Made by a program: the position numbers and the translations under genes. A model generated the notes under the pieces. The model did no database searches. It saw only the letters and a list, made by a program, of their open reading frames with translations, and was not told the DNA's origin. From contig DATJPE010000101.1 of the NCBI GenBank assembly GCA_035506535.1, forward strand, positions 1 to 34,577: a stretch of DNA of 34,577 bases. Reading direction: 5' to 3'. This document shows, in pieces, positions 8,428 through 33,234 of this stretch (the first letter of the stretch is position 1; each line of letters opens with the position of its first letter). This DNA is from Actinomycetes bacterium. GTDB lineage: Bacteria > Actinomycetota > Actinomycetes > DATJPE01.

Positions 8428-8428
8428 G

Positions 8429-9549: not shown

Positions 9550-9639
9550 CCCATCCCCGCCTGCTGCCTGTTCCGCCCTACCCGTCGCGCGGTACCCGAG
9601 CCGCTCGAATCTCGGCTGATCGAGGTGGCGGCAGCGCTC

Positions 9640-9645
9640 TAGGGT
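9640..9645 (+). promoter_or_regulatory. Possible -10 box, leaderless start of the MFS gene
   Basis: TAGGGT lies 9 nt before the GTG at 9655, and no Shine-Dalgarno sequence is present. This fits a leaderless transcript. The -35 element is not clear. Confidence 0.3.
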
Positions 9646-9654
9646 CTGCTCACT

Positions 9655-10890: not shown

Positions 10891-10900
10891 CCCGCGCGCC

Positions 10901-11248: not shown

Positions 11249-11260
11249 CTTCATCTCCGG

Positions 11261-11346
11261 CATCGACATCCATCGACATTGACAATCATCGATGCTACAC
11301 CTAACGTCGCTGCATCGACGGATCTCGATGTCGACTCGTATCGATG
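11261..11346. promoter_or_regulatory. Ars operator region with CATCGA / TCGATG repeats
   Basis: The divergent arsR-arsI intergenic region carries repeated half-sites: CATCGA at 11261, 11271 and 11313, a palindrome CATCGATG at 11287-11294, TCGATG at 11325-11330 and ATCGATG at 11340-11346. Their clustering between an ArsR gene and its operon makes them the likely ArsR binding sites. I cannot place -10/-35 elements with confidence. Confidence 0.55.
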
Positions 11347-11362
11347 CCCGAGGGGACGACCC

Positions 11363-11869
11363 ATGTCGCGCGTACAGCTCGCCCTCAACGTCTCGGACCT
11401 CGAAGCGTCCGTGGAGTTCTACGCCAGCTTGTTCGGGGTGAGCCCGCACAAGCGTCGCCCGGGGTACGCGAACTTCGCGGTCAACGACCCACCGCTCAAG
11501 CTCGTTCTCATCGAGGTCCCCGCCGACGCGCGCGGCCGGGGGACCGTCGACGCGTTGAACCACCTCGGCATCGAGGTCGAGACGACGACCCGGGTGGATG
11601 CCGAAGCCGACCGCCTGCGTGACGCCGGCCTGGCCGCCGTAGACGAAGCGGCCACCACCTGTTGCTTCGCGCTTCAGGACAAGGTCTGGCTGCACGACCC
11701 GGCTGGCGCTCCCTGGGAGATCTACACCGTCAAGGACGATGATCCGGACGGCCTCGGGCTCGGCCCTCTCTCTCCGAATCCGGTCGGAACGACAACGAAT
11801 GATGGCGGCTGCTGCACGACCCCCGTGCCGGCAGGCCGACTCGGACCCGTCGGCGCCAGCTGCTGCTGA
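11363..11869 (+). CDS. arsI: ArsI/CadI-type vicinal-oxygen-chelate metalloenzyme
   Basis: A 168-residue glyoxalase-fold (VOC) protein of the ArsI/CadI group. ArsI enzymes are Fe(II)-dependent dioxygenases that split the C-As bond of trivalent methyl- or aryl-arsenicals. Likely metal ligands are Q5 in VQLALNV, H67 in ALNHLGIEV and E119 in PWEIYTV. The cysteine pair C100-C101 in ATTCCFALQDKVW is the expected organoarsenical binding site. Two further Cys pairs (C150-C151 and the terminal C167-C168) lie in a flexible tail and may bind metal. ATG 11363 has AGGGG upstream. First gene of the ars operon; its stop overlaps the aquaporin start as TGATG. CadI, a cadmium-induced paralogue, is the alternative name, but the arsenic context favours ArsI. 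Confidence 0.85.
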   Translation: MSRVQLALNVSDLEASVEFYASLFGVSPHKRRPGYANFAVNDPPLKLVLIEVPADARGRGTVDALNHLGIEVETTTRVDAEADRLRDAGLAAVDEAATTCCFALQDKVWLHDPAGAPWEIYTVKDDDPDGLGLGPLSPNPVGTTTNDGGCCTTPVPAGRLGPVGASCC

Positions 11870-13240: not shown

Positions 13241-13661
13241 CGACAAGCCAGTTGTTCTCTTCGTCTGCGTCCACAACGCCGGTCGGTCGCAGATGGCAGC
13301 CGGCTATCTGACGGCGATGTCCGGCGGTGCGGTCGAGGTCCGCTCCGCCGGCTCCGAGCCGGCCGACCGGATCAACCCGGTGGCCGTCGCGGCGATGGCG
13401 GAGGACGGCATCGACATCACGGATGCCACACCGCGGGTGCTCACCACGGACGCCGTCAAGGACTCCGACGTCGTCATCACGATGGGCTGCGGCGACACCT
13501 GTCCAGTGTTCCCCGGCAAGCGCTACGAGGACTGGGACGTGGCTGACCCAGCGGGGTTGCCGCTGGAGGACGTACGTCGGATCCGAGACGACGTCAAGCG
13601 TCGGGTCCTGACGTTGCTCGATGACCTCGGCGTCACGCCAGCACGGCGAACAACCGCCTGA
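13233..13661 (+). CDS. arsC: Arsenate reductase (arsenate-mycothiol transferase type)
   Basis: A 142-residue single-domain paralogue of the preceding ArsC. The catalytic loop is C12-VHNAG-R18 in LFVCVHNAGRSQM. The GCGDTCPVFPGKRYEDWD block and VADPAGLP follow, matching mycothiol-dependent arsenate reductases of Corynebacterium and Mycobacterium. The start ATG 13233 lies inside the end of the upstream arsC (8-nt overlap); the apparent open frame far upstream is spurious. As the last gene of the ars operon it reduces As(V) to As(III) for exit through the aquaporin. Its 3' end overlaps the convergent hydrolase-cyclase gene by 29 nt (13633-13661), so antisense transcription is possible there. Confidence 0.9.
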   Translation: MTDDKPVVLFVCVHNAGRSQMAAGYLTAMSGGAVEVRSAGSEPADRINPVAVAAMAEDGIDITDATPRVLTTDAVKDSDVVITMGCGDTCPVFPGKRYEDWDVADPAGLPLEDVRRIRDDVKRRVLTLLDDLGVTPARRTTA

Positions 13662-14958
13662 CCTCGGGCACGCCCTTGAGCTCGTGAAGACCGCGGTCCT
13701 CGAAGACGATCCCTGACCCGGCCACGAGGTCCTTGACCGTCTGAGACACCAGCACCTCGGAAGGCCCCGCGACGCCGGCGACTCGGGCGCCGATGGAGAC
13801 AGCCAAGCCGGCGCACTTGCCCTCGACCAGGGTGCATTCGCCGGTGTGCACGCCTGCCCGGATCTCGATGCCCAGGCTCCGGACCCGGTCACGCACCTCC
13901 ATCGCGCATCGGATGGCGCGGGCCGGCCCGTCGAAGGTCGCGTAGAAGCCGTCGCCCGCCGTGTCGTTCTCCACGCCACGCCAACGCGAGAGAGCCTCGC
14001 GGACGATTGCATGGTGGGCGGTCACGACTGCTCGCCAGGGGCGGTCACCCATGGCGGCCTGCTGCGCGGTGGAGTCGACGATGTCGGTGAAGAGCACGGT
14101 CGACAGGACCCGGTCGCTCTCCGCCGTCGGGCGCGTGCCCGTCACGAACTCCTCGATCTCGTCCACGATCGCGTCCGCGTCGCCGAGGAAGGGGATGTGG
14201 TCGTCGCCGCGCAGCTCCACGAGCCTTGCGTGGGGGATCGCCTCGGCCAGAAACCTCGCCTGGTCTGCAGGCACGATACGGTCGCCGCTGCGCTGCAGCA
14301 CGAGGGTGGGCGCCTGGATCGAGGGGAGCACCGCCCGGACGTCGACGTCACTGAAGATCCCGGCCAGCTCCCGATACGCCGTGGGCGTCGCGACGAGTCG
14401 CTCGAACCGCGCCCACCAGGTGACGAAGGCCGGATCGTCTGCGCCGCTGGGCCCCTGAAGGTCGAGGTTGCGTCCGGTGCCCATCTCCGCGACGAAACGG
14501 CCGAAGAACTCACGCTGCTGGGCCGGTGTCCGGCCATAGGGGTGGTCGGCGCTGCGCACCGTCTTGGCGAGCGCGCCATAGAGGATCAGCGCCCGGGTCC
14601 GCTCGGGGTACGTCGCCGCGAAGAGCATGGACATCGCTCCACCCCGCGCCCCGCCGAACACGACCGACGTCTCGCTCCTCGCGGCTGCCATGACCGCCAC
14701 GATGTCGTCCATCTGGACCTCGAGGAACGGCGGCTCGGGCCCGCGGTCGGACAGGCCGACCCCGCGCATGTCGAAGACGATCAGTCGGGAGAAGGACGCT
14801 AGGCGGTTCAGGTAGTGGGCCCAGCGCGGCTCGTCCCACATGACGTCGAGGTTCGACCAGATCCCCGGTGTGTAGACGAGATCGACCGGGCCGTCCCCGA
14901 CGACGGTGTACGCGATGTGCACGTCGCCGTTGACCGCGTAACGCACCTCTCGCAGCAC
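13633..14958 (-). CDS. Alpha/beta-hydrolase fused to class III cyclase, both sites altered
   Basis: A 441-residue two-domain protein. Residues 1-272 are an alpha/beta-hydrolase, but the nucleophile-elbow motif reads GGARGG, placing Ala104 where Ser is expected; D226 and H254 of the triad remain. Residues 285-441 are a class III cyclase domain. Metal-binding D292 (LFTDIVDST) and D336 (TAGDGF) and the R392 equivalent are present. The adenine-selecting Lys is D332, and its partner Asp is replaced in GLAVSIGARV. The same architecture occurs in M. tuberculosis Rv1900c. This member may be a ligand sensor with weak, altered or no cyclase activity. The GTG start is 4 nt after the stop of the large cyclase gene, so they form one operon. 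Confidence 0.85.
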   Translation of the reverse strand: MLREVRYAVNGDVHIAYTVVGDGPVDLVYTPGIWSNLDVMWDEPRWAHYLNRLASFSRLIVFDMRGVGLSDRGPEPPFLEVQMDDIVAVMAAARSETSVVFGGARGGAMSMLFAATYPERTRALILYGALAKTVRSADHPYGRTPAQQREFFGRFVAEMGTGRNLDLQGPSGADDPAFVTWWARFERLVATPTAYRELAGIFSDVDVRAVLPSIQAPTLVLQRSGDRIVPADQARFLAEAIPHARLVELRGDDHIPFLGDADAIVDEIEEFVTGTRPTAESDRVLSTVLFTDIVDSTAQQAAMGDRPWRAVVTAHHAIVREALSRWRGVENDTAGDGFYATFDGPARAIRCAMEVRDRVRSLGIEIRAGVHTGECTLVEGKCAGLAVSIGARVAGVAGPSEVLVSQTVKDLVAGSGIVFEDRGLHELKGVPEVRRLFAVLA

Positions 14959-14962
14959 GGGC

Positions 14963-17900
14963 TCACCCTAGGGGCGTGTCCGCGTCTGCCGGGTCGAGCA
15001 GGGGCAGCAGTGCTGGAGCGCCGATGCGCTCCAGGAATTCGCGCGCGCTCGCGATCTGGTCCTCGGGCAGGGCCGCGGCCGCCAGGGTGTGGACGGCGCA
15101 GATCGAGGCGAGGGCGTGGTCGAGGGGACTGTCGATGCCGGCCCACTCCTCCAGCGCCGCGGCGAAGGCTTCCGCGGCTCCCTCGTCACCGTCCAGCGCG
15201 TGCAAGGACGCCGTGGCCGTGGCCCGCATCGCCAAGGTCGACCTTCCGCGCAGCGGCCGGCTGAGGTCGAGCACGTCGGCCAGCGCCTCCCGGTCGCGCA
15301 GGACGCAGGCCGCGACGATGGCCACCCACGCGTTGCGCAGCGCGTTGGATCCGGCGCGCTGCATGGCGAGCCCGGTGCGACCGTCCTCGAGGGCGCCTGC
15401 CGGGTCGCCGGCGGCCAGCCGGACCAGGCCACGGGAGCGGCGGAACCAGGTCTGCATCTGGATGTGCGGCCAGCGGTTCTCCACCGGCTCCATGGTGTCC
15501 AGCAGCGCGATCCCCTCAGCGACGTTCCCCGTCAGGGCCTCGATCGTCGCCAGGCTGAAGGCCATGCCGTCACTGGCCGGGTCATCCGCGGGGACGTCGC
15601 CGACCAGTGCCTCACGAGCGATCCCCAGCTCGCCGAGATCGGTCGCGGCCTCCGCGAGGTTCGCCCGGTTCATCCAGTCCAGCGGTCGGATCCCCAGGCG
15701 GGCGGCGATGCGGTGGGCCTCCTGGAAGGCCTCCATGCACCCCCTGAGGTCGTCCTCACCGAGCACCACCCCGAGCGAGGTCAGCGCCTGGGCCAGCTCG
15801 GTGGCACTGCCCATCGTGCGCGCCAGCTCGACGACGCCGCCGATCAGCAGGCCCGCCTCCCAATGGCGCCCGCTGTCCCCGAGCGCCCAGGTCTTCGCCG
15901 ATGCCGCCAGGCGCAGCGCGACGTCGTCGTCCACCTGCTCGGCGAGCTTCATCGCCTCCTCCGCCCAGCCGAGCGCCTCCTCGTGCGCTCCGCGGCTGGA
16001 GCACCAGTCGGCCATGGTGGCGATGACCTGGACCCGGACGAGGTCCTCGCGACCACGAGTGATCTCCTCCGCGAGGCGCAGCATCCGCTCACCGAGCTCC
16101 GGCAGGCGGTGGGCCACGATGCGCAGGTCGTCGGCCATGAGACGCCCGACCTGTTCGTGGTGACCAGTCCGCTGCGCGGCGAGCATCGCCTCCTCGATCA
16201 GGTGCCCCATCCGTTCGCCGTCCCCGACCTGCGCTGCGAAGTGCGCGGCGAGGGCCAGGGTCGAGGCCCGCTCCACGGGATCGACGCTGAGGCTCAGCGC
16301 CTGCTCGGCGTGGCTCAGCGCCACCTCCGGCGACCCGAGAGAACCGGCTCGTTCTGCCGCCCGGGTCAGCCAGGTCCGCGCCAGGACGGCGAGGTCCTCG
16401 GAGTCGGGCGCCCCGGGCTCGGCACGGTATGCCTCCAGGTAGTGCGACGCCACGACGCCGGCCAGCTCGTCGTCCCCGAGGGAGTCGAAGTACCGGGCAG
16501 CAGCCAGGTGGCCGGTACGCCGTGCCGGCTTGGCCAGCGTGGAGTAGGCCACCTCGCGCAGCACGGCCTGGACGAAGCCGTACTGGCCGCGCTCGGGGGA
16601 GAGCGGGTCCACGTCCTGGTCCAGCAGCTCGCGGCGGACGAGGGCGCGGACGGTGGGCTCCACCTCGTCCACCGGCCGGCCGCTCACCGCCGACAGGCCC
16701 GCCACGGTGAAGCGCTCGCCGACCACGGACGCCGCCTGCAGCAACGTCCGTTCGGGGTCCGGCAGCCCGTCCATCCGGGCGAGCAGCAGCGCGTGCAGCG
16801 TGTGCGGGATCTCCAGCTCGCCGCCGAGCTCGGCCACCGCCCGGTAGGTGTCACCGACCTGCTCGAGCACCCCACGGTCCGCGAGCATGCGGACCGTCTC
16901 GACGGCGTAGAGCGGGATGCCCTCGGCGCGGTGCACCACCCGCTCGACGTCGGAGCTCGGGAGACCCTCCACGTAGCCGGTCACCAGGTCGCGCATCGCC
17001 TCGTCCGGCAGCGGCTCCAGGTGGGTCCGGGTGGCGTTGTGCCGTCCCGCGCCCCACGCCGGGTGACGCTCGTAGAGCTCCGGTCGCGTCAGCACGTAGA
17101 CGATGAGCGGGACGTGGCGCGAGCCGGCCAGCAGCGACTCGATGAACTCGAGCAGTCCCGGGTCGGCCCAGTGCACGTCCTCGAAGACCAGGACGGTCGT
17201 ACCCAGCTCGGCCACCCGCTCGAAGTAGCGCCGCCAGGCGCCGAACAGCTCCTCTGCGCCGCCCGGCGGTGCCGGGGCGAGCCCCAGGAGGTGGCCGATC
17301 CGCGGCTCGAGCCAGGCGCGTTCCTCCGGATCCGCGACGAGGTCGTCCAGCGAGGCGTGGAGCAGCTCCCTCGCCCGGTCCGGCTCGTCGCCGTCGGCGA
17401 TGCGGGCCCGCCGGCGGACCATGTCCGCCACGGCGGAGAACGTCACGCCCTCGCCGTAGGACGGGCAGCGGCCCTGGTGCCAGTAGATGTTCTCGGTCAG
17501 CCCGTCGACGTACTTCTGCAGCTCCCAGACCAGCCGGGACTTGCCCATACCCCCGATCCCCGAGACCACAGCGAGCCGCGGGCGTCCTTCGCGGCCGGTG
17601 GCGTGCAGCAGGTCCTTGAGCAGTCTCAGCTCCTCGACCCGTCCCACGAACGGCGGCTCGGGAGCGGCGCCGCGCAGGTGACCACCGCGCTCGGCCACCA
17701 CGCGCTCGGCCCGCCACGCGTGCACCGGTTCGGACTTGCCCTTGAGCTGCAAGGGTTCCACTGCCGTGAAGGCGATCGCGCTCGCGGCTGCGCGGAAGGT
17801 TCCCTCACCCACGAGGACGGCGCCCGGCTCGGCGGCGGCCTGCAGTCGCGACGCGGTGTTCACCAGGTCGCCGGCCACCAGCCGCTGGTCGGACGCCCCT

Positions 17901-18433
17901 GGCGAGGCCACTGCCTCACCGGTGAGCACGCCGGCGCGTGCCTGCAGCGGGAGGCCCTGGGAGCGTCCGAGCGCGGCGACCTCGGGCACGATCTCCAGGG
18001 CCGTCCGCACCGCCCGCTCGGCATCGTTCTCGTGCGCGACCGGGGTCCCCCACACCGCCATCACCGCGTCGCCGATGAACTTCTCGACGACCCCGCCGTG
18101 GCGCTGGACGGCCTCGGAGGCGACGTCGAAGTAGCGGCCGAGCACCGACCGTACGTCTTCGGCGTCGCGGCCCGAGGCGAAGGAGGTGAACCCGACGAGG
18201 TCGACGAAGAGCACGGTCACCAGGCGGCGTTCCGCGAGCTCCGACGGCGGGCGTACGGCTGCGCCCGACTCGACCTCGTTCGCGCCCAGGGGGTTGCCGC
18301 ACTGGCCGCAGAACCGGCTGCCCGCCGGGTTGGGCGATTCGCACGCGGGACAGGAGGTGGTCTGCGGCGTCCCGCACTGGGTGCAGAACCGGCTGCCCGG
18401 GGGAACCGGGGAACCGCACGCGGGACACTCCAT
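14963..18433 (-). CDS. Zinc-ribbon / adenylate cyclase / AAA-ATPase / TPR protein
   Basis: A 1156-residue signalling protein. Residues 1-48 hold two zinc ribbons (CPACGSPVPPGSRFCTQCG and a second CPAC...CGQCG copy). Residues 68-240 are a class III cyclase with every key residue: metal Asp D78 and D122, adenine-selecting K118 and D189, and R196. Residues 260-520 form an AAA_16-type ATPase with Walker A GIGGMGKS (292-299) and Walker B-like VLVFEDVHWAD. The remaining 600 residues are TPR-like helical repeats rich in Ala, Leu and Glu. It should make cAMP under control of the NTPase/TPR sensor. ATG 18433 has GGAGG 6 nt upstream. It leads an operon with the hydrolase-cyclase. Confidence 0.9.
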   Translation of the reverse strand: MECPACGSPVPPGSRFCTQCGTPQTTSCPACESPNPAGSRFCGQCGNPLGANEVESGAAVRPPSELAERRLVTVLFVDLVGFTSFASGRDAEDVRSVLGRYFDVASEAVQRHGGVVEKFIGDAVMAVWGTPVAHENDAERAVRTALEIVPEVAALGRSQGLPLQARAGVLTGEAVASPGASDQRLVAGDLVNTASRLQAAAEPGAVLVGEGTFRAAASAIAFTAVEPLQLKGKSEPVHAWRAERVVAERGGHLRGAAPEPPFVGRVEELRLLKDLLHATGREGRPRLAVVSGIGGMGKSRLVWELQKYVDGLTENIYWHQGRCPSYGEGVTFSAVADMVRRRARIADGDEPDRARELLHASLDDLVADPEERAWLEPRIGHLLGLAPAPPGGAEELFGAWRRYFERVAELGTTVLVFEDVHWADPGLLEFIESLLAGSRHVPLIVYVLTRPELYERHPAWGAGRHNATRTHLEPLPDEAMRDLVTGYVEGLPSSDVERVVHRAEGIPLYAVETVRMLADRGVLEQVGDTYRAVAELGGELEIPHTLHALLLARMDGLPDPERTLLQAASVVGERFTVAGLSAVSGRPVDEVEPTVRALVRRELLDQDVDPLSPERGQYGFVQAVLREVAYSTLAKPARRTGHLAAARYFDSLGDDELAGVVASHYLEAYRAEPGAPDSEDLAVLARTWLTRAAERAGSLGSPEVALSHAEQALSLSVDPVERASTLALAAHFAAQVGDGERMGHLIEEAMLAAQRTGHHEQVGRLMADDLRIVAHRLPELGERMLRLAEEITRGREDLVRVQVIATMADWCSSRGAHEEALGWAEEAMKLAEQVDDDVALRLAASAKTWALGDSGRHWEAGLLIGGVVELARTMGSATELAQALTSLGVVLGEDDLRGCMEAFQEAHRIAARLGIRPLDWMNRANLAEAATDLGELGIAREALVGDVPADDPASDGMAFSLATIEALTGNVAEGIALLDTMEPVENRWPHIQMQTWFRRSRGLVRLAAGDPAGALEDGRTGLAMQRAGSNALRNAWVAIVAACVLRDREALADVLDLSRPLRGRSTLAMRATATASLHALDGDEGAAEAFAAALEEWAGIDSPLDHALASICAVHTLAAAALPEDQIASAREFLERIGAPALLPLLDPADADTPLG

Positions 18434-18517: not shown

Positions 18518-19477
18518 TCACTTCCGCCTGGACATGGCCATGAGGCGGCCGTTCTCCATCCGGACGGGCACCGGGTCGATGATGTCGAAGCTGAGAATCC
18601 CCTGCGGCTCCAGGTTCCGGAATCCGACGAACGCCCACGTCCCGTCGCGCTGCTGGACGAGAGGGGCTGCGAACAGTGCCGGTTCCTCGGTGAACGGCTG
18701 CGCCGCGCCGATGTCCCACGGCCCGATCACGCTGTCTCCCGTCACCGACCAGGTCGAGAAGCTGCCGACGGTGTCGAGCCGCTCCTGCGTCTGCTCCTGC
18801 GGGTGGCAGGTGAAGACGAGGACGACCTGCCCGTCCACGACCCGGACCTGCGCCACTTCCAGCTGTCCGAAGCCGGCCCCAGGCGAGCAGACCGGCGGGC
18901 CCACCTCCCAGGTCAGCAGGTCGTGGCTGCGCGCCTCCGCCAGCACCCCGTCGTCGTTGGGGGCGGCCCCCGCCGCACGGGCCGTGATGAGCATGCGCCA
19001 TCCGTCGCCATCGGGGTCGCGGAACACGAAGGGGTCGCGCCAGGTCTCGCTCGCCGCTGGGTCCTCGTCGAGGGACTTGTACCAGCGGGTGTCGACCTCG
19101 ACCGCGGGGTGGTCGAGGACCCTCCGCCACGTGAACAAGTCGGCCGACTCGGCCACGCCGACCCGCTGGTCCTTCAGCCCGTGCCCGCCTGTGTTGATGG
19201 CCGTGTAGAACATCCGCCAGAGACCGTCGTCGCCACGAACGACCGACCCGGTCCACAGGGCGAGGTCGTCCCAACCGTGCGGATCCGGGCCGAGGGCGAC
19301 TCCGTGGTCGGTCCACTCGATGAGGTCCGTCGAGGTCGCGTGGCCGATCGCCGCCGCGGCGTGCCGACGTCCCGGGTCGCCCAGCGAGCGGGGCGCCCGA
19401 AGGAAGTAGAGGTGGTACAGGTCGCCATCGTCGGCGATCCAGCTGTCCCAGATCCAGTCGTCAGGGTGACGGAACAC
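18518..19477 (-). CDS. GH32/GH68-like beta-propeller glycoside hydrolase
   Basis: A 319-residue five-bladed propeller protein of the GH32/68/43 superfamily, with no signal peptide, so probably intracellular. Candidate active-site acids follow the GH32 order: D11 in WIWDSWIADDGD (nucleophile position), D148 in the WRDPFVF motif (the RDP transition-state stabiliser) and E207 in FGQLEVAQV (acid/base position). Members split beta-fructosides such as sucrose or fructans; closely related propellers act on other furanosides. It is divergent from the amylosucrase gene with 138 nt between them, suggesting joint sucrose or fructoside use. The GTG start at 19477 has GAGGGGAG 6 nt upstream. At 319 residues it lacks the C-terminal beta-sandwich of classical invertases. 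Confidence 0.7.
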   Translation of the reverse strand: MFRHPDDWIWDSWIADDGDLYHLYFLRAPRSLGDPGRRHAAAAIGHATSTDLIEWTDHGVALGPDPHGWDDLALWTGSVVRGDDGLWRMFYTAINTGGHGLKDQRVGVAESADLFTWRRVLDHPAVEVDTRWYKSLDEDPAASETWRDPFVFRDPDGDGWRMLITARAAGAAPNDDGVLAEARSHDLLTWEVGPPVCSPGAGFGQLEVAQVRVVDGQVVLVFTCHPQEQTQERLDTVGSFSTWSVTGDSVIGPWDIGAAQPFTEEPALFAAPLVQQRDGTWAFVGFRNLEPQGILSFDIIDPVPVRMENGRLMAMSRRK

Positions 19478-19615
19478 GAGGCTCCCCTCGAGGGCGCGGG
19501 TCTCGGCGGGTCACTGTACGGCGAGACGGCCTGGCGTTTCCGTGGGAGCGTGGCTGGCTGCGCACCGGCCCCTCGACGCCTACCCTGCCCAAGCACCGGG
19601 ACGAGGGAGGTGGCG

Positions 19616-21574
19616 ATGACCCACGGTTCGGCGTCGGACGACGTCGTCCGTCGCCTGCTCGCCGGCGCGGTGGCCGATGCGGCGGGACGGCTCGCCGAGC
19701 CCGATGCGGCAGCCTTCGTCCTGCGCGCGCAGCGCTGGCTGCCTGACGTGTTGCGTCCTCTCGAGGCGCTGTACGGCGATCGCGTCGACGTCGCGGAGCT
19801 CGTGCGAGACCTCCTCGACGACGCGGTGGGTCTCGTGGCCGAGCGGAGCGACGAGCTTCGTGCCCTGGACCGCCAGCGGGAGTCCGACCCCGACTGGTTC
19901 CAGGAGTCGCGGATGGTCGGCTACGTCTGCTACGTCGACCGATTCGCGGGCACGCTCACCGCCATGCGCTCGCACCTGGACTACCTGGCCGAGCTCGGGA
20001 CGACGTACCTGCACCTCATGCCGGTGCTCGCGCCGCGCGAGGGCGAGAGCGACGGTGGGTACGCCGTCGCCGACTACGACGCGGTCGACCCACGCATCGG
20101 CGTCATCGGCGATCTCACGGCCCTGGCGAGCGACCTGCACCGGCGTGGCATCGCCCTGTGCGTCGACCTGGTGCTCAACCACACGGCGCGGGAGCACCCG
20201 TGGGCGCAGCGCGCCCTGACCGGCGACCCACGATTCCGCGACTTCTACCTGGTCTATCCCGACCGGCTGATGCCCGACGCCTTCGAGGCCACGCTGCCGG
20301 AGATCTTCCCCGGCCTCGCACCGGGGAGCTTCACCCACGTCGAGGGGCTCGGCTGGGTGTGGACGACGTTTCGTGAGTTCCAGTGGGACCTCAACTACGC
20401 CAACCCCGACGTGTTCCGAGCGATGCTGCGCACGATGTTGACCCTCGCCAACCGGGGGGCGGACATCCTGCGTCTGGACGCGGCCCCGTTCCTCTGGAAG
20501 CGGCTCGGGACCGACTGCCAGGACCAGCCGGAGACGCACCTGCTGCTGCAGGCGTTCCGCGCCATGCTGTCCGTCGCGGCCCCCGGTGTGCTGCTCAAGG
20601 CCGAGGCGATGGTGGCCCCTGACATCCTGACCCGCTACCTGGGCGACCACGGGGAGTACTGCCGCGAGTGCGACCTCGCTTATGACAACCAGCTCATGGT
20701 GATGCTGTGGTCGATGCTGGCCACCGGCACCTCCGACCTCGCCCGACAGGCGCTCACCCGCCGGCCCGCCGCTCCCCGCTCGACGAGCTGGGTGACCTAC
20801 GTGCGCGGCCACGACGACATCGGCTGGGCGGTGGCCGACGCCGACGCTGCCGCAGTCGGGCTCGACGGCCCCGCGCACCGGCGCTTCCTCAGCGAGTTCT
20901 ACGACGGGACCGTGCCCGGCTCCTTCGCCGAAGGGGACGTCTTCCAGGCCAGCCCGACGGGGGCGTCGCCGATCAGCGGGACGACCGCGTCACTCTGCGG
21001 TGTCGGGATCGCGCTGGAGGCCCAGGACGAGGTCGCGCTCGACCTGGCGCTCTCCCGGCTCGAGGCGCTGTACTCCGTGGTCTTCTCCTTCGGGGGGATC
21101 CCCCTCGTCTACATGGGCGACGAGCTGGCCCTGCGCAACGACCCGGCCTGGGCCGACGAACCGGGCCACGGCCACGACAACCGATGGGTCCACCGCCCGC
21201 GGATGGACTGGGCCGCTGCCGAACGCCGCAACCAGGAGGGCACGGCCGAGTCGCGGGTGTTCGCGACCATGAAGGTGCTTGCAGCGGCGAGGGGGGAGCT
21301 CAGCGCCCTGCGCTCCGATGCCTCCTCGACCGTGCTCGACCTCGGCGTGCCGGGCCTGCTCGCCTATGTCCGAGGAGCCGAGGACGGCAGCGGCCTGCTC
21401 GCCCTCGTCGACATCGGCGGGAACGGGCAGGTGGTCGGCTTCGACATCCTTCGCTCGGCAGGGTTCGACGTTCCCGCCATCGCGGTGGTCGGGCGGCACA
21501 CGGCGTCGGTCGCCGACGACGCGGTCCACCTGCGGCCGTACGGCTTCGCCTGGCTGCCGCTCCCTCGCGACTGA
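19616..21574 (+). CDS. Amylosucrase (GH13 subfamily 4)
   Basis: A 652-residue cytoplasmic enzyme predicted to use sucrose to build an alpha-1,4-glucan and release fructose. The N-terminal helical domain (about 1-98) precedes the (beta/alpha)8 barrel, as in Neisseria polysaccharea amylosucrase. Catalytic residues are the nucleophile D288 in ILRLDAAPFLWK, the acid/base E330 in LLKAEAMVAP and D400 in YVRGHDDIGW; the last block and FREFQWDLNYANP are diagnostic for amylosucrases and related sucrose hydrolases. ATG 19616 follows GGGAGG with 5-6 nt spacing; a GTG two codons earlier is possible. The frame is open far upstream on this strand, but that part is antisense to the cyclase and GH32-like genes. 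Sucrose hydrolase is the main alternative. Confidence 0.9.
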   Translation: MTHGSASDDVVRRLLAGAVADAAGRLAEPDAAAFVLRAQRWLPDVLRPLEALYGDRVDVAELVRDLLDDAVGLVAERSDELRALDRQRESDPDWFQESRMVGYVCYVDRFAGTLTAMRSHLDYLAELGTTYLHLMPVLAPREGESDGGYAVADYDAVDPRIGVIGDLTALASDLHRRGIALCVDLVLNHTAREHPWAQRALTGDPRFRDFYLVYPDRLMPDAFEATLPEIFPGLAPGSFTHVEGLGWVWTTFREFQWDLNYANPDVFRAMLRTMLTLANRGADILRLDAAPFLWKRLGTDCQDQPETHLLLQAFRAMLSVAAPGVLLKAEAMVAPDILTRYLGDHGEYCRECDLAYDNQLMVMLWSMLATGTSDLARQALTRRPAAPRSTSWVTYVRGHDDIGWAVADADAAAVGLDGPAHRRFLSEFYDGTVPGSFAEGDVFQASPTGASPISGTTASLCGVGIALEAQDEVALDLALSRLEALYSVVFSFGGIPLVYMGDELALRNDPAWADEPGHGHDNRWVHRPRMDWAAAERRNQEGTAESRVFATMKVLAAARGELSALRSDASSTVLDLGVPGLLAYVRGAEDGSGLLALVDIGGNGQVVGFDILRSAGFDVPAIAVVGRHTASVADDAVHLRPYGFAWLPLPRD

Positions 21575-21691: not shown

Positions 21692-24600
21692 ATGACGGTC
21701 GGGGACGCCACGCGCCGGCTGACACGGGGACGGGGGCGGATCTCCGAGCGCACCGTGCTGCTCGTCGCCTCCTTCGGCGCGTTCCTCGCCTTCCTGGACG
21801 CGACCATCGTCAACGTCGCCTTCCCCAGCATTCAGCGGTCGTTGCCCGGCTCCTCGATCTCCTCGCTGTCGTGGATCCTGAACGCCTACAGCATCGTCTT
21901 CGCCGCGTTCCTCGTCGTCTCCGGACGGCTGGCCGACCTCGTGGGTCGACGGCGTGCGTTCACCGTCGGGGTGCTGCTCTTCACCCTCTCCTCCGCCGTG
22001 TGCGCCGCCGCCGGCTCCGTGGGCTTCCTGGTGGGTGCGCGGATGTTCCAGGCCCTCGGGGCGGCGATCCTGGTACCGGCGTCGCTCGCCCTGGTCGTCC
22101 AGGCCTTCCCCGCCGCGCGCCGCTCGCACGCGATCGGGCTCTGGGGGGCATCGGCGGCGCTCGCCGCCGGGCTCGGACCTCCTGTCGGAGGAGCTCTCGT
22201 GGAGGCCGGCGGTTGGCGCTGGGCCTTCCTCGTCAACGTCCCCGTTGGTCTCGCCGCGACGTGGGCGGGCCGGTCGCTGCTCGTCGAGAGCCGCGCCCCG
22301 GGCCGTCGCCGCCGACCCGACCTGCGGGGTGCGGTTCTCTCGGCGCTCGCGCTCGGTCTGCTCACCCTCGGCCTGGTCAAGAGCGGTGACTGGGGATGGG
22401 GCAGCGCGCAGGTCTGGGCGTGCTTGCTCGCCTCCGCGGCCTTCTTCGGCGGATTCGTGCTCAGCTCCCGCAACCATCCGACGCCGCTGCTCGACCCGAC
22501 CCTGCTGCGCATCCGGGCCTTCGCCGTCGGCAACCTGTCCTCGCTCGTGGCCGGCGCCGGCTTCTACGCCTACCTGCTGACGAACATCCTGTGGCTGCAA
22601 TACGTCTGGGGCTACTCGGTGTTTCGCGCCGGCATGGCCGTCGTCCCCGGTGCCCTCGTCGCCGCGCTGCTCGCCGCCGCGCTGGGTCGGGTCGCGGAGA
22701 CCCGCGGCTACCGGTTGGTCGTCGTGCCCGGCGCCCTCGTCTGGGCACTGGCCTATGTCTGGTACGCCACCCAGGTGCCGGTCACGCCAGACTTCCTGGC
22801 GACCTGGCTCCCCGGCCAGATCCTCAGCGGCATAGGGGTGGGAGCGACCTTGCCCGTGCTGGGCAGCGCGGTGCTGGCCGCGGTGCCCGGGGGCAGGTTC
22901 GCGACGGCGTCGGCGGTCAACACCAGTGCGCGCCAGGTGGGCGCCACCTTGGGCATCGCGATCCTCGTCATCATCGTCGGGACGCCTAGCGCGACTTCTA
23001 CCACGACGCTCGTCGACGGATTGCGTCACGCCTGGGTGTTCTCGTCGGTCTGTTTCGTCATGACCGCGGCGCTGGCCGGGCTCCTCGGCCGGGTTCGGGT
23101 GGACCTCACTGCCGAGGAGGTGGACGACGGCTCACTCCCGAGCGTGCTGCTCCCCGTCGCGGCGTCGCCCGCGGTAGCCGCCGGCGCGGGCGTCACCACC
23201 ACCGGATTGCTGTCCCGCTTGCCCGAAGACGTCCGCAAGCAGCTGGAGGCGGACGCTACCGAGGTGCATCTGGCGGCGGGGGAGTGGCTGTTCCGCGAGG
23301 GCGACCCTGCAGACGACTTCTACCTGCTGGTCACGGGTCGGCTCGAGGTGTCGACGGGTTCGGTCCAGCTGCGCCAGCTCGGCGCCGGGGCCGTGATCGG
23401 CGAGCTGTCCCTGCTCACCGGGGGCCGGCGGTCGGCGTCGATCAGGGCGCGCAGGGACAGCCGGCTGCTGCGTGTGTCCCGAGGCGCTTTCGACTCAGTG
23501 GTCCGAGAGGACCGGGCGGCTCTCGACGCGCTCGCCACCGTGCTCGCCGAGCAGATCCAGGACGGAGCCGTCCCGGAGCGCTCCAGTCGTCCTCCTCGAC
23601 CGAGCGTGGTCGCCGTTGTCGGACTCGTCCCCGAGGCCCCGGTCGCAGCGGTGGCCGAGGCGCTGCGGGGTGCCCTCGAGAGGTTCGTCGAGGTGCTCCG
23701 GCTGGACGCGGCGACCCCGGACGGATTGGAGCGGGCCGAGGCGGAGCACGAGCGGGTCATGCTCGTCGCCACGGATCCGGAGGGCGAGTGGTGGCGGCGC
23801 TGCGTCAGACAGGCCGACCACCTCGTGCTCGTGGCGCCCGCGGACACGCCGCCGCCGGCGGAACCGCCGCTCGGGCGCACCGGTGCGGACGTCGTGCTGG
23901 TCGGCCCGCGCCCGGCCACCGGGGCGCAGGTCCGCGCCTGGGCAGCCGCGACGGATGCGTGGGCGGTGACGAGCACGCAGTCCCCACCCGGCGTGGGCGA
24001 CCTACGCCGGCTGGCCGCCCGTATCGGGGGCGGCTCGGTCGGCGTCGTGATGGCGGGGGGAGGTGCGCGTGCCTTCGCACACATCGGCGTGCTCCACGAG
24101 CTGAGCGCGGCGGGGATCGAGGTGGACCGGGTCGCCGGGGCGAGCCTGGGCGCCGTGGTCGCGGCTCTATGGGCCAGCGGTCACAGCGCCCAAGAAGTCG
24201 AGGACATCTGCTACGAGGAGCTCGTACGGCGGCGGCCGTTCAGCGACTACACCCTCCCCGTCGCGTCGGTGGCCAAGGGCCGGCGCCTGGAGCACGCGCT
24301 GCACCGCCGGTTCGGCAACCTCGCGATCGAGGAGCTCCCGAGGCGGTTCGCCTGCACCAGCACCGACCTGCAGGCGCGGACCGTGCACGACATGCGGCGT
24401 GGGCGAGTCGTCGACGCCCTGCTCGCGTCGGTGTCGCTGCCGGTGCTGTTCCCCCCTCGACGTGACGGGCCGCGCCTGCTCTCCGACGGCGGGATCCTGG
24501 ACAACCTCCCGGTGCGCCTGCTCACCGATCGCGACGAGGGCCCGGTCCTCGCCGTCAACATCGGTACCGGCGGCTCCCCGACCCGGCCGGCATCCGGCGA

Positions 24601-24838
24601 CACTTCAGAGACGGCAGGCACTGTGAGGGTGCCGACGCTCGGCGAGACCCTGATGCGCACGATCTTCATCGGGAGCGGCCGAGCGCTCGCCCAGGCGCAG
24701 GCCGCCGGCGCGGTGGTCGTGACGCCGTCCACGCGCGGTGTGGGACTGCTCGAGTTCCACCAGCTCGACCGCATGGTGGAGTCGGGCCGCGCTGCGGCGC
24801 GAGCCGTCCTGGACCAGGCGCCGAGGTTCCTGTCGTAG
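21692..24838 (+). CDS. MFS exporter - cNMP-binding - patatin phospholipase fusion
   Basis: A 1048-residue protein with three modules. Residues 18-468 are a 14-helix DHA2-type drug/proton antiporter (motif A-like SGRLADLVGRRRAF, and LGPPVGGALVEAGGWRW). Residues 505-625 are a cyclic-nucleotide-binding domain whose phosphate-binding cassette is IGELSLLTGGRRSASI (E571, R580). Residues 780-1040 are a patatin/NTE phospholipase with oxyanion loop GGGAR (789-793), nucleophile S818 in GASLG and D932 in SDGGILDNLP; the Ser-Asp dyad is intact. Mycobacterial proteins such as Rv3239c and Rv3728 share this architecture as I recall it. Cyclic nucleotide may gate lipid hydrolysis or export. ATG 21692 follows GAGGAG; an upstream in-frame extension lacks a ribosome site. 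Confidence 0.92.
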   Translation: MTVGDATRRLTRGRGRISERTVLLVASFGAFLAFLDATIVNVAFPSIQRSLPGSSISSLSWILNAYSIVFAAFLVVSGRLADLVGRRRAFTVGVLLFTLSSAVCAAAGSVGFLVGARMFQALGAAILVPASLALVVQAFPAARRSHAIGLWGASAALAAGLGPPVGGALVEAGGWRWAFLVNVPVGLAATWAGRSLLVESRAPGRRRRPDLRGAVLSALALGLLTLGLVKSGDWGWGSAQVWACLLASAAFFGGFVLSSRNHPTPLLDPTLLRIRAFAVGNLSSLVAGAGFYAYLLTNILWLQYVWGYSVFRAGMAVVPGALVAALLAAALGRVAETRGYRLVVVPGALVWALAYVWYATQVPVTPDFLATWLPGQILSGIGVGATLPVLGSAVLAAVPGGRFATASAVNTSARQVGATLGIAILVIIVGTPSATSTTTLVDGLRHAWVFSSVCFVMTAALAGLLGRVRVDLTAEEVDDGSLPSVLLPVAASPAVAAGAGVTTTGLLSRLPEDVRKQLEADATEVHLAAGEWLFREGDPADDFYLLVTGRLEVSTGSVQLRQLGAGAVIGELSLLTGGRRSASIRARRDSRLLRVSRGAFDSVVREDRAALDALATVLAEQIQDGAVPERSSRPPRPSVVAVVGLVPEAPVAAVAEALRGALERFVEVLRLDAATPDGLERAEAEHERVMLVATDPEGEWWRRCVRQADHLVLVAPADTPPPAEPPLGRTGADVVLVGPRPATGAQVRAWAAATDAWAVTSTQSPPGVGDLRRLAARIGGGSVGVVMAGGGARAFAHIGVLHELSAAGIEVDRVAGASLGAVVAALWASGHSAQEVEDICYEELVRRRPFSDYTLPVASVAKGRRLEHALHRRFGNLAIEELPRRFACTSTDLQARTVHDMRRGRVVDALLASVSLPVLFPPRRDGPRLLSDGGILDNLPVRLLTDRDEGPVLAVNIGTGGSPTRPASGDTSETAGTVRVPTLGETLMRTIFIGSGRALAQAQAAGAVVVTPSTRGVGLLEFHQLDRMVESGRAAARAVLDQAPRFLS

Positions 24839-24906: not shown

Positions 24907-25305
24907 ATGGTGGTCACGTCCGCCGAGCTCGGTGCCGTGCCGCTGTTCGACGGCCTCGACGACGAGGTGCTGTCGACGTTGGCCTCACGCTTTGTCGTCG
25001 AGCGCCACGAGCGGGGATCCGTGGTCGTGGCCGAGGGAGAGGACGCCCGGGCGTTCTACGTCCTCGCATCCGGCCGCGTCACGGTGACAGCGGGCGGCCG
25101 CCGGGTCGGGGATCTGGGACAGGGCGACTTCTTCGGCGAGATCGCCGTCCTGGGCGCGGGAGCCAGGACGGCGACGGTCACTGCCGTCGAGCCGGTCGTC
25201 GTGTGGGCCCTGCCGACCGACGCGTTCCGGTCCCTGACCATGAGTCGCCCGGCGGTGGCCTTGGCACTTCGCGGTGTCATGACCGAACGGCTCGGGCAGG
25301 TCTGA
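24907..25305 (+). CDS. Stand-alone cyclic-nucleotide-binding domain protein
   Basis: A 132-residue protein consisting only of a Crp-type cNMP-binding fold: helix LFDGLDDEVLSTLASRF, beta-roll with YVLASGRVTV, and phosphate-binding cassette FFGEIAVLGAGARTATV containing the expected Gly-Glu and Arg-Thr/Ser-Ala residues. It has no HTH, kinase or channel part, so it must act by binding a partner. ATG 24907 follows GGGGAGG. It lies 68 nt after the MFS-cNMP-patatin gene on the same strand and could modulate it or compete for the same nucleotide; this is inference from adjacency. A truncated Crp regulator is an alternative, but the length and clean end look deliberate. Confidence 0.82.
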   Translation: MVVTSAELGAVPLFDGLDDEVLSTLASRFVVERHERGSVVVAEGEDARAFYVLASGRVTVTAGGRRVGDLGQGDFFGEIAVLGAGARTATVTAVEPVVVWALPTDAFRSLTMSRPAVALALRGVMTERLGQV

Positions 25306-29906: not shown

Positions 29907-31180
29907 CGGCAACCTCCGCGATCAGCCTCGCCGACGTCGACCTCACCGACCAGGACGCCTTCCAGCGTGCCGTGCCCTACGACTGGTTCCGTCTCCTGCG
30001 CGAACGCGCGCCGGTGCACTGGAACCCGGAGCGGAGCGGCCGTGGCTTCTGGTCGGTGACGCGCTACGCCGACGTGGTCGCGGTGTCGCGCGACACGGCG
30101 ACCTACTCCTCGGAGCGGGGTGCCTCGGCGCTGGAGGACCTGGAACCGGACGCGCTCGAGGCACGGAAGTCGATGATCGACATGGATCCGCCGGGTCACA
30201 CGAGGCTGCGGCGCAAGGTCGCGCCCGAGTTCACCCGACGCGGCGTCTCCCACTACGAGCAGCTCGTCCGGGAGACCGTCACCGAGGTGCTCGACGCTGC
30301 CCTGCCGAAGGGCGAGTTCGACTTCGTCCCCGATGTCGCGACCGAGGTGCCGATCCGAGTCCTCTGCCGCATCCTAGGCGTCCCCGAGCGGGACGAGCGC
30401 AGGCTGGTCGAGCTGGGTGACCGGATGTTCGGCAACACCGATCCCGACATCGCCGACGTCCTGCTCGACAGCCCGGCGAGCGAGCAGTACCGGCTGGTGC
30501 CCTTTCGCAGCCCGGCGGCGCTCGAGATGCACGACTACGCGCGGTGGCTTGCCCGCCAACACCTGGCGGACCCCGGCGCGGACCTGATGTCCCGCCTGGT
30601 CCGGTCGGACAACAGCGGTCCGGCGCTGGTCGGCAAGGAGCTGGACGCGATGTTCCTGCTCCTGGTGGTCGCCGGCAACGAGACGACCAGATCGGCGCTC
30701 GCGTTGGGGTTGCAGGCGTTCGTCGAGAACCCGGAGCAGTGGGACGCTGTGCGCCGCGGTGACGCCCGCGGCCTCGACTCGGCGGTCGAGGAGGTCCTGC
30801 GCTTCACGACCCCCTTGCACCACTTCAGGCGTACGGCGACCCGCGACACCGTCCTGGGCGGGACGTCCATCACCGAGGGGGACAAGGTGGTGGTGTGGTT
30901 CACGTCGGCGAACCGTGACGAGGAGGTCTACGCCGACCCCGACGCCTTCGACGTCACGAGGGATCCCAACCCCCACGTCGCGTTCGGCCGGGGAGGTCCC
31001 CACCGGTGCATCGGCGAGCACCTCGCCCGTCTCGAGATCCGCATCGTGCTCGAGCAGCTCCTCGCGCGCACCGAACGCTTCGAGGTCGTCGGATCGCCGC
31101 GCCGTGTGCGGTCCAACTTCTCCAACGCGCTGACCTCCCTGCCCGTGCGTGTCGTGGGAGCCCGCTCCGCCGGGGGCTAG
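29903..31180 (+). CDS. Cytochrome P450
   Basis: A 425-residue soluble bacterial P450. The I-helix oxygen-activation motif is VVAGNETTRSA (AGNETT, 257-262), the K-helix ExxR is E297-VL-R300 in AVEEVLRF, and the heme loop is AFGRGGPHRCIGEH with the thiolate ligand Cys369. MIDMDPPGHTRLRRKV (91-106) is the conserved C-helix region. It should hydroxylate or dealkylate a small substrate using NADPH through a ferredoxin and reductase, neither of which is encoded in the window. The fold resembles the CYP124/125/142-like and linalool-hydroxylase-like group, but the substrate is unknown. It is the last gene of the four-gene overlapping operon. Its TAG stop overlaps the convergent cysteine desulfurase stop in a CTAG palindrome at 31177-31180. 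Confidence 0.92.
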   Translation: MTATSAISLADVDLTDQDAFQRAVPYDWFRLLRERAPVHWNPERSGRGFWSVTRYADVVAVSRDTATYSSERGASALEDLEPDALEARKSMIDMDPPGHTRLRRKVAPEFTRRGVSHYEQLVRETVTEVLDAALPKGEFDFVPDVATEVPIRVLCRILGVPERDERRLVELGDRMFGNTDPDIADVLLDSPASEQYRLVPFRSPAALEMHDYARWLARQHLADPGADLMSRLVRSDNSGPALVGKELDAMFLLLVVAGNETTRSALALGLQAFVENPEQWDAVRRGDARGLDSAVEEVLRFTTPLHHFRRTATRDTVLGGTSITEGDKVVVWFTSANRDEEVYADPDAFDVTRDPNPHVAFGRGGPHRCIGEHLARLEIRIVLEQLLARTERFEVVGSPRRVRSNFSNALTSLPVRVVGARSAGG

Positions 31181-33234
31181 GGCCGTCCGGCCTGGATCTT
31201 GCGAAGTGCCTCCACGAGGCAGTCGACGTCCTCAGGCGTGTTGTACAGCGCGAGGGAAGGCCGCACCGTGCTCTCCACGCCGAAGCGGCGCAGGATCGGC
31301 TGCGCGCAGTGGTGCCCGGCCCGCACCGCGATGCCCTCGCGGTCCAGCGCCGCGCCGACGTCCTCGGTCCGGAAGCCGTCGAGGACGAAGGAGATGACGC
31401 CGGCCTTGTCAGCGGCCGTCCCGATGAGGCGCAGGCCGGGGATGGTACGCAGGCCGTCGGTCGCATAGCCGAGGAGCTCGTGCTCGTACGCCGCGACGTT
31501 GGCCACACCGATGCCGCTCAGGTAGTCCAGCGCCGCGCCGAGACCCACGGCGTCGGCGATGTTGCCGGTGCCCGCCTCGAACTTCGACGGCGGGTGCTGG
31601 TACACCGTCCGCTCGAAGGTCACGTCAGCGATCATGTTCCCCCCGCCCTGCCAGGGAGGCATGTCCTCGAGCAGCCGCTTCTTGCCGTAGACGACACCGA
31701 TGCCCGTCGGGCCGAAGACCTTGTGTCCGGAGAACACGAAGAAGTCACAGTCGAGTGCCTGCACGTCGGTCGGCATGTGCGAGACCGACTGGGCGCCGTC
31801 GAGCAGGACGGGTACGCCGTGCCGGTGGGCGATGTCGATCATCGCAGCGGCCGGGGTGATCGTGCCCAGCGCGTTGGACACCTGGGTGAAGGCGACCAGC
31901 CGGGTCCTCGGCGTGATGAGCCGCTGGTACTCGGAGAGCACCACCTGGCCCGTGTCGTCGACGGGAGCAACTCGCAGGACCGCTCCGGTCCGGGCGCAGA
32001 CCTGTTGCCAGGGCACGATGTTCGCGTGGTGCTCGAGCCAGGTGATGAGGACCTCGTCGCCTCGGTCGAGGTTGGCGATCCCCCAGCTCTGGGCGACGAG
32101 GTTGATGCCCTCCGTCGTCCCCCGGACGAAGACGACCTCCTCGTCGGAGGGTGCGTTGAGGAAGCGCCGGACCTTGTCCCGCGCCGCCTCGTAGGCGTCG
32201 GTGGCGCGTGCCGCAAGGACGTGCGCGGCACGGTGGATGTTGGAGTTCTCGTGCTCGTAGAAGTGCGACAGGCGGTCGATCACGGCCTGCGGCTTCTGGG
32301 TCGTCGCCGCGTTGTCCAGCCACACCAGCCGCTTGCCGTGCACCTGGGTGCGCAGGATCGGGAAGTCACCACGCACCAGGTGCGGGTCGAAGGGTCCCGG
32401 CGCGCGCTCCAGCGTGGGCACCAGGTCCGGGTGGAAGCCGAGTGAGCTCTCCGAGATCTGGAGATCGGCGGACCGGACCGGGCTCGCCAGGGCGGAGCCG
32501 GCCTCGTCCATCGGGTACGCCACGGCCGGCTGTGCCGAGACCGGGACGGCCAGCGGATCGGGGACACCCTCGAGGGAGCTGGGCTCGGCGGCGTCGGGCG
32601 TGGCCGAGGGCACGACGGGCATGAACGGCACGGCCGCGACGAAACCCATCACCGCACCCAGGGTGGTCGGCACCTGAGCCAGCTGCACCTCGTCGGGCAT
32701 CGGCACGGGGGAGCCGGCGGGCTGCTCGAACGCCGGGGTCGTCGCGACGTCGTGCGAGGCGGTCGGTACCGACGAGGCGAGGGGCTGCGGAACCTCCGCG
32801 GCAGGTGGGTCGGCGGTGGCAGGGCCGTCGGCCAGGCTCAGCAGCGCGACGAGGTCCGGAGGAGCCGGGACGCCGGGTGGGAGCGACGGCAGCGTGGTGA
32901 AGGACGCGACGCCCAGCGGTGGGGGGAGCTCAGTGAGGTAGGGCGCGTCCGGGACCGGCACAGGTGACACCAGCGGTCCCGGGAGGGGTGCGCTCGCGGT
33001 GGCCGCGGACGTCGGGGGTGCGGGTTGGCTGCGAAGCGACGGCGAGGGCGGCGACAGGGGAGCGGGTGGGGGCAGGTTGCCGGGTGCCGCCGAGGGAGCG
33101 ACGGTGGCGCCGTCGGGCAGGGCGCGGAAGAACTCGTTGGCCAGGGCGGTCAGCGTCGCGACGTCCGGCAGCCCGACCGCCGGCCCCTCGCCATCCGTCG
33201 GCACGCCGTCACCGACGACGTCACTTGTACTCAT
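31177..33234 (-). CDS. Encapsulin cargo: SufS-type cysteine desulfurase with long N-terminal domain
   Basis: A 685-residue protein. Residues 286-685 form a class V aminotransferase-fold cysteine desulfurase of the SufS group. PLP-binding K505 lies in FVFSGHKVFGPTG, and persulfide-forming C643 in VRAGHHCAQPILRRFG, within the usual active-site loop. Before it lies an extension of about 280 residues, 1-60% of it Pro and Ala, predicted disordered, containing islands such as LPDVATLTALANEFFRALP (22-40) and two related motifs, LTELPPPLG (100-108) and LAQVPTTLG (185-193). Family 2A encapsulins load exactly this kind of desulfurase through its N-terminal extension. It converts cysteine to alanine and enzyme-bound sulfur, and links to sulfur storage. 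ATG 33234 overlaps the encapsulin stop by 14 nt. Confidence 0.93.
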   Translation of the reverse strand: MSTSDVVGDGVPTDGEGPAVGLPDVATLTALANEFFRALPDGATVAPSAAPGNLPPPAPLSPPSPSLRSQPAPPTSAATASAPLPGPLVSPVPVPDAPYLTELPPPLGVASFTTLPSLPPGVPAPPDLVALLSLADGPATADPPAAEVPQPLASSVPTASHDVATTPAFEQPAGSPVPMPDEVQLAQVPTTLGAVMGFVAAVPFMPVVPSATPDAAEPSSLEGVPDPLAVPVSAQPAVAYPMDEAGSALASPVRSADLQISESSLGFHPDLVPTLERAPGPFDPHLVRGDFPILRTQVHGKRLVWLDNAATTQKPQAVIDRLSHFYEHENSNIHRAAHVLAARATDAYEAARDKVRRFLNAPSDEEVVFVRGTTEGINLVAQSWGIANLDRGDEVLITWLEHHANIVPWQQVCARTGAVLRVAPVDDTGQVVLSEYQRLITPRTRLVAFTQVSNALGTITPAAAMIDIAHRHGVPVLLDGAQSVSHMPTDVQALDCDFFVFSGHKVFGPTGIGVVYGKKRLLEDMPPWQGGGNMIADVTFERTVYQHPPSKFEAGTGNIADAVGLGAALDYLSGIGVANVAAYEHELLGYATDGLRTIPGLRLIGTAADKAGVISFVLDGFRTEDVGAALDREGIAVRAGHHCAQPILRRFGVESTVRPSLALYNTPEDVDCLVEALRKIQAGRP

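What the first reader, a model, noticed from the sequence alone, without database searches (positions are those of the whole stretch)
21692..24838. Exporter, cNMP sensor and phospholipase in one polypeptide
A 14-helix DHA2 exporter is fused to a cNMP-binding domain with an intact phosphate cassette and a patatin domain with an intact Ser-Asp dyad (S818, D932). Mycobacterial relatives of this architecture exist but their substrate and the link between transport and lipid hydrolysis are unknown. It could be a cAMP-gated lipid remodelling or lipid export machine.
Basis: partly seen in the sequence, partly recalled or inferred. Interest (0 to 1): 0.6.

Follow-up and report, generated by a model that had tools for sequence, protein, structure and literature searches.

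The report
Cyclase-linked cAMP-sensing transporter–phospholipase
This bacterial protein joins a membrane exporter, a cAMP-sensor domain and a fat-cutting enzyme in one chain, and in many related bacteria its gene sits beside genes for the enzyme that makes cAMP, so it is probably a cAMP-switched machine for reshaping or exporting membrane lipids.

Summary
Window 21692-24838 (+) is one intact 1048-aa frame: a 14-helix DHA2/EmrB-type MFS transporter, a CRP-like cNMP-binding domain, a degenerate NTE-type Rossmann domain and a patatin domain with the S818/D932 dyad. The architecture is not new. Full-length colinear homologues (39-71% identical) occur across Actinobacteria, including Mycobacterium, where relatives are filed as efflux pumps. 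In 75 homologues S818, D932 and the cassette Arg are invariant; the cassette Glu is kept in 74.

The new evidence is genomic context. Class III adenylyl cyclase genes of several unrelated architectures neighbour this gene: 15 of 28 well-flanked non-mycobacterial loci and 5 of 20 mycobacterial ones. In three Microbacterium genomes the neighbouring cyclase is the only one in the genome. In two mycobacteria cyclase and transporter overlap by 4 nt; in one of them a wax-ester/diacylglycerol acyltransferase and a second cNMP-patatin follow. The window itself has two cyclase genes 3-8 kb upstream and a lone cNMP-binding gene downstream, but that alone is weak (about 0.05 expected by chance).

Best reading: cAMP from the linked cyclase controls a cytosolic (lyso)phospholipase fused to an EfpA-like lipid transporter. 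cAMP sensing is likely, catalysis very likely; lipid substrate and transport-hydrolysis coupling remain inferred.

The parts
21692..24838 (+). MFS-CNB-patatin fusion protein, 1048 aa
21746..23077 (+). DHA2/EmrB-type MFS transporter, residues 19-462, 14 predicted TM helices; motifs D1 (D36), A, B (R117) and C conserved in at least 74 of 75 homologues
23207..23563 (+). cNMP-binding domain, residues 506-624
23387..23449 (+). Phosphate-binding cassette, residues 566-586: E571 (74/75 homologues) and R580 (75/75)
23597..24031 (+). Rossmann/P-loop-like domain of NTE type, residues 636-780; no Walker A in any of 75 fused homologues
   Evidence: (PF24179 below cut-off)
24038..24562 (+). Patatin domain, residues 783-957; nucleophile S818 at 24143-24145, D932 at 24485-24487
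24907..25305 (+). Stand-alone 132-aa cNMP-binding protein, 68 nt downstream, same strand
14963..18433 (-). Class III adenylyl cyclase: double zinc ribbon + Guanylate_cyc + AAA_16; canonical catalytic residues present
13633..14958 (-). LipJ-like alpha/beta hydrolase + class III cyclase domain (closest solved structure LipJ, 1ybt)

Best explanation
The protein is a cAMP-controlled lipid-remodelling transporter. Steps: (1) a class III adenylyl cyclase, often encoded next door and carrying an AAA/TPR half, makes cAMP [association shown by genomics; activity inferred from residues]. (2) cAMP binds the CRP-like cNMP-binding domain tethered by a short linker to the cytosolic end of helix 14 [binding inferred from the conserved cassette]. 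(3) The resulting movement changes the activity of the adjacent patatin domain, which deacylates phospholipid or lysophospholipid at the inner leaflet [dyad shown intact; substrate inferred from the NTE family], and of the MFS unit. (4) The EfpA-like MFS unit moves a lipid, most likely the lysolipid or fatty-acid product, through the membrane by proton antiport [inferred from fold similarity and conserved DHA2 motifs]. In some mycobacteria a co-encoded WS/DGAT acyltransferase could store or re-esterify released acyl chains.
For: Domains and residues. Model with 14 helices. Best structural match EfpA with lipids, TMt 0.84; PlpD phospholipase for the patatin part, TMt 0.82. EfpA described as a lipid transporter resembling MFSD2A: (PMC10802681). 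Cyclase neighbours: (15/28 non-mycobacterial and 5/20 mycobacterial loci with at least 4 kb on both sides). The neighbour is the only cyclase gene of the genome in three Microbacterium genomes of a 99-genome sample (G756, G813, G862) and in M. mangrovi. Genes overlapping by 4 nt, and WS/DGAT plus a second CNB-patatin. The fused MFS half groups apart from the unfused DHA2 paralogues of the window's genome (two rows labelled unfused, L110 and L113, fall inside and look like broken copies), and MFS and C-terminal distances correlate at r = 0.91, as expected for one old fusion. The window's genome has this as its only patatin gene.
Against: No binding or activity data. For mammalian NTE, whose CNB domains look similar, a 2022 paper states that no evidence showed cAMP binding (PMC9319352). 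The window's nearest relatives (L037, L038, L103, L133-L136) have no cyclase adjacent; several have an MBL-fold gene instead. In the window's own genome there are about 10 cyclase genes, so two at 3-8 kb could be chance, about 0.05 expected. Mycobacterial homologues are filed as drug efflux pumps.
Confidence: 0.5

Rival explanations
1. The transporter and phospholipase are both cAMP-regulated but not mechanically coupled: the MFS half is a general exporter for drugs or amphiphiles, the patatin repairs or adjusts the surrounding membrane, and one sensor co-regulates the two.
For: TIGR00711 drug-efflux subfamily above cut-off; EmrB and QacA also match well; MFS-CNB fusions without patatin occur beside it and in the window's own genome by sequence, so the sensor can serve a transporter alone; stand-alone CNB-patatins also exist.
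Against: The full MFS-CNB-patatin chain is kept as one polypeptide with an invariant dyad in 75 sequences.
Confidence: 0.25
2. The CNB domain is only structural (NTE-like) and does not bind cyclic nucleotide; the protein is a constitutive membrane-anchored phospholipase whose MFS half acts as an anchor or constitutive lipid exporter.
For: In mammalian NTE no evidence of cAMP binding was known; 6 of 13 stand-alone relatives have Asp for the cassette Glu.
Against: Cassette E in 74/75 and R in 75/75 fused proteins; recurrent cyclase neighbours of several architectures.
Confidence: 0.12
3. The CNB responds mainly to a nucleotide other than cAMP (for example cGMP).
For: Only residues, not ligand, are known; cGMP kinases are among the closest PDB matches to the CNB region.
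Against: Neighbour cyclases carry the Lys (KxxGD) and Asp of adenylyl cyclases (sequences; reading of the residues from established knowledge of class III cyclases).
Confidence: 0.06

Closest known systems
Mycobacterial MFS-CNB-patatin proteins (Rv3239c and Rv3728 type)
   Same: Same domain order and length; Mycobacterium proteins are 48-51% identical end to end, often as two or more paralogues. That Rv3239c and Rv3728 themselves have this architecture is from general knowledge.
   Different: Not next to GH13/GH32 genes; usually no cyclase adjacent (5 of 20). In the papers read, Rv3239c and Rv3728 are treated as efflux pumps of unknown or rifampicin specificity.
Neuropathy target esterase family (PNPLA6/7, Swiss cheese; bacterial CNB-patatin such as Rv2565)
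   Same: CNB, P-loop-like domain, patatin with Ser-Asp dyad, membrane-bound.
   Different: NTE has one TM anchor and three CNB domains; here a 14-TM transporter and one CNB. PF24179 is below its curated cut-off.
EfpA (DHA2 lipid/drug transporter of M. tuberculosis)
   Same: Best PDB match for the MFS half by sequence (1e-46) and fold (TMt 0.84).
   Different: No cytosolic sensor or phospholipase.
LplT-Aas lysophospholipid remodelling system
   Same: An MFS lipid flippase paired, sometimes fused, with a lipid-modifying enzyme (PMC11416262).
   Different: Aas acylates rather than hydrolyses; no cyclic-nucleotide sensor.
Mammalian soluble adenylyl cyclase (ADCY10)
   Same: The recurrent neighbour cyclase has two cyclase domains, AAA ATPase and TPR; ADCY10 architecture from general knowledge.
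   Different: Neighbour gene, not the protein itself; bicarbonate response untested.

Membership tests
DHA2 (EmrB/QacA) MFS transporters | Score above TIGR00711 cut-off | tested here: met
   238.9 against 230.2 bits
DHA2 (EmrB/QacA) MFS transporters | 14 TM helices | tested here: met
   14 long helices, residues 19-462, high pLDDT
DHA2 (EmrB/QacA) MFS transporters | Motifs A, B, C and D1 | tested here: met
   Key residues in 74-75 of 75 homologues
DHA2 (EmrB/QacA) MFS transporters | Proton-coupled export | not testable with these tools
   Needs transport assay
NTE-type CNB-patatin proteins | Patatin domain with Ser-Asp dyad and oxyanion loop | tested here: met
   PF01734 108 bits; S818 and D932 75/75
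NTE-type CNB-patatin proteins | CNB domain N-terminal to the catalytic part | tested here: met
   PF00027 72 bits
NTE-type CNB-patatin proteins | NTE P-loop-like domain at curated score | tested here: inconclusive
   22.3 against 27 bits; Rossmann-like strand/helix order in the model
NTE-type CNB-patatin proteins | (Lyso)phospholipase activity | not testable with these tools
   Needs enzyme assay
Mycobacterial MFS-CNB-patatin (Rv3239c/Rv3728) architecture | Colinear full-length homology over all domains | tested here: met
   48-51% identity over about 1030 residues to Mycobacterium proteins; the H37Rv sequences themselves were not compared
cAMP effector proteins | Intact phosphate-binding cassette (Glu, Arg) | tested here: met
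   E571 74/75, R580 75/75
cAMP effector proteins | Measured cAMP binding and allosteric response | not testable with these tools
   Needs binding assay

The most novel reading that the evidence does not exclude
Actinobacteria possess a dedicated class of cAMP-gated secondary transporters: MFS proteins with a fused cNMP-binding domain, with or without patatin, encoded with their own adenylyl cyclase and often a lone CNB protein and an MBL-fold hydrolase that may destroy cAMP. The MFS-CNB-patatin form couples cAMP directly to phospholipid hydrolysis and lipid export, bypassing transcription.
Probability: 0.35. Interest if true: 0.82.

Novelty: new member of a known kind. Interest (0 to 1): 0.57.

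Why it matters
Mycobacteria carry many cyclases and CNB proteins, and most effectors are uncharacterised. The recurrent gene linkage names the likely signal and effector pair and offers a genus outside the mycobacteria (Microbacterium) with a single cyclase gene in which to test it. It would also give a tractable case for the open question of whether NTE-type CNB domains respond to cAMP, and show a post-translational route from a second messenger to membrane lipid composition.

Tried and rejected
Plasmid collection: no match at 1e-60. All-against-all neighbour search with every ORF timed out; repeated without the main gene. FHA proteins directly upstream in L062/L102 first looked like cyclases by a weak match, rejected by Pfam. 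The matches of the window cyclase in L067, L068, L070 and L106 fall in kinase/AAA proteins cut by the locus end, so these loci were not counted as cyclase-linked. The protein between cyclase and MFS gene in nine loci matches no Pfam family in the examples scanned. The MBL-fold neighbour could be RNase Z-like or a cAMP phosphodiesterase; scores are far below either curated cut-off, so left open. Structure prediction of the C-terminal half with 4 rows was too poor to use (pLDDT 51). No paper in the library holds patatin, major facilitator and cyclic nucleotide-binding together, nor three of the four terms CNB domain, MFS transporter, adenylate cyclase, patatin-like phospholipase; this covers only open papers.

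Full report
The thing itself. Window 21692-24838 (+) is an uninterrupted 1048-codon frame. It holds MFS_1, cNMP_binding and Patatin domains at strong scores and passes the curated cut-off for the EmrB/DHA2 family. An AlphaFold2 model from 55 homologues (pLDDT 88, pTM 0.85) has 14 long helices up to residue 462, a CNB beta-roll (506-624), a Rossmann-like domain (636-780) and the patatin part (783-957). The closest solved structures are EfpA with lipids for the MFS half and PlpD for the patatin part.

Conservation. Full-length homologues were found in Nocardioides, Microbacterium, Knoellia, Janibacter, Phycicoccus, Actinotalea, Flexivirga, Jatrophihabitans, Mycobacterium (often two or more copies), Solirubrobacterales and unnamed Actinobacteria. 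In 75 sequences S818, D932 and R580 are invariant and E571 is present in 74; MFS motif residues are present in 74-75. Average conservation is highest in the MFS half (0.72) and the patatin domain (0.67), lower in the CNB (0.58), and lowest in the linker (0.32). Distances in the MFS half and the C-terminal half correlate (r = 0.91); in the MFS tree the fused sequences group apart from the unfused DHA2 paralogues of the window's genome, with two rows labelled unfused (L110, L113) inside the group that look like broken copies of the fused gene. One old fusion is the simplest reading. The family is nevertheless patchy: besides the window's own genome, 2 of 396 sampled genomes of the phylum at E <= 1e-120 and 3 of 99 Microbacterium.

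Context in the window. On the minus strand upstream lie a GH32 gene (18518-19477), a zinc-ribbon/class III cyclase/AAA protein (14963-18433) and a LipJ-like hydrolase-cyclase (13633-14958); a GH13 gene (19604-21574) precedes the fusion on the plus strand; a stand-alone CNB gene (24907-25305) follows after 68 nt. The larger cyclase aligns with solved adenylyl cyclases and carries both metal Asp, the Lys and Asp of adenine recognition and the Asn-Arg pair (reading of the residues from general knowledge). The genome has 11 cyclase-domain matches in about 10 genes, so a cyclase within 8 kb has roughly 0.05 expected by chance; the window alone is suggestive only.

Context in relatives. The commonest neighbour is a protein with class III cyclase, AAA_16 and TPR. 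Most non-mycobacterial ones have two cyclase domains, the metal-binding Asp in the first and the Asn/Arg motif in the second. Cyclase-bearing neighbours were found in 15 of 28 non-mycobacterial loci with at least 4 kb on both sides, in nine genera or groups, and in 5 of 20 mycobacterial loci; Jatrophihabitans (L073), Knoellia aerolata (L100) and L093 have them too but fall outside that count because of shorter flanks. Architectures include tandem cyclase-AAA-TPR, cyclase-AAA (L064, L071), kinase-AAA-cyclase (L072) and CHASE2-cyclase (L093). Against this, twelve genomes examined hold 1 to about 15 cyclase genes, giving about 0.16 expected chance neighbours for the set, where nine were seen; these twelve were chosen partly because they had neighbours. 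A less biased sample is Microbacterium: in 99 genomes the fusion occurs in 3 and the tandem-cyclase type in 7; all 3 with the fusion have the cyclase, within 7 kb, and it is their only cyclase gene (co-occurrence by chance 2e-4). Related genomes are not independent, so these figures overstate the evidence somewhat.

Operons. In Mycobacterium simulans (L064) and M. angelicum (L071) the cyclase gene ends inside the start of the fusion gene (4-nt overlap). In M. angelicum a WS/DGAT acyltransferase and then a second CNB-patatin gene follow on the same strand; in M. simiae (L069) a WS/DGAT also follows. In Solirubrobacterales a CNB-patatin gene lies directly upstream. The window's close relatives have an MBL-fold hydrolase next door, also seen at several of the cyclase loci. 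MFS-CNB fusions without patatin lie beside it in L058, L104 and L138.

Mechanism. Shown: architecture, intact sites, conservation, cyclase linkage. Inferred: cAMP binding, control of patatin and transporter, lipid as cargo. EfpA is described as a lipid transporter with three lipids in its path, and LplT-Aas is a precedent for an MFS lipid flippase joined to a lipid-modifying enzyme. For mammalian NTE, cAMP binding by the similar domains had no evidence as of 2022, which is the main reason for caution.

Known or new. Mycobacterial proteins of this kind are filed as efflux pumps or membrane proteins, so the protein is a new member of a known kind. The cyclase linkage was not found in the open papers searched, which is not proof that nobody has noted it.

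Noticed in passing
L141 (own genome C63:84000-98000), 4479-8306 -, 8346-10208 -, 10165-11381 +: A second cAMP locus in the window's genome: tandem-cyclase/AAA/TPR gene, a 620-aa frame that reads as an MFS-CNB fusion, a CNB-like match and the MBL-fold gene, the same partners that flank MFS-CNB-patatin elsewhere.
   Followed up: partly
L140 (own genome C14:2000-16000), 2944-4275 +, 5605-8985 -, 9071-10678 +: Paralogous cluster of LipJ-like hydrolase-cyclase, cyclase-AAA and an MFS gene without CNB, resembling the window arrangement.
   Followed up: partly
L138 3518-5218 and 6176-7906; L058 9199-10980; L104 4091-5992: MFS-CNB fusions without patatin near the MFS-CNB-patatin gene: a wider set of possibly cyclic-nucleotide-gated transporters.
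   Followed up: partly
L050 4883-5848 -, also L051, L054, L056, L057, L058, L073, L089, L116: About 330-aa protein with a signal-peptide-like N-terminus and conserved Cys, no Pfam family in the examples scanned, near the cyclase and the MFS gene in nine loci; possible exported partner.
   Followed up: partly
L037 9162-10004 -, L038, L039, L103, L073, L104: Conserved MBL-fold hydrolase (HxHxDH) near the fusion, weakly like RNase Z and like a cyclic-nucleotide phosphodiesterase; candidate for switching the signal off.
   Followed up: partly
window 18518-21574: Divergent GH32 (minus) and GH13 alpha-amylase-family (plus) genes between the cyclases and the fusion gene, perhaps sucrose metabolism.
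   Followed up: no
window 31177-33234 -: Class V aminotransferase domain at the C-terminal end of a 685-aa frame with about 300 residues before it that match no Pfam family; start not checked.
   Followed up: no
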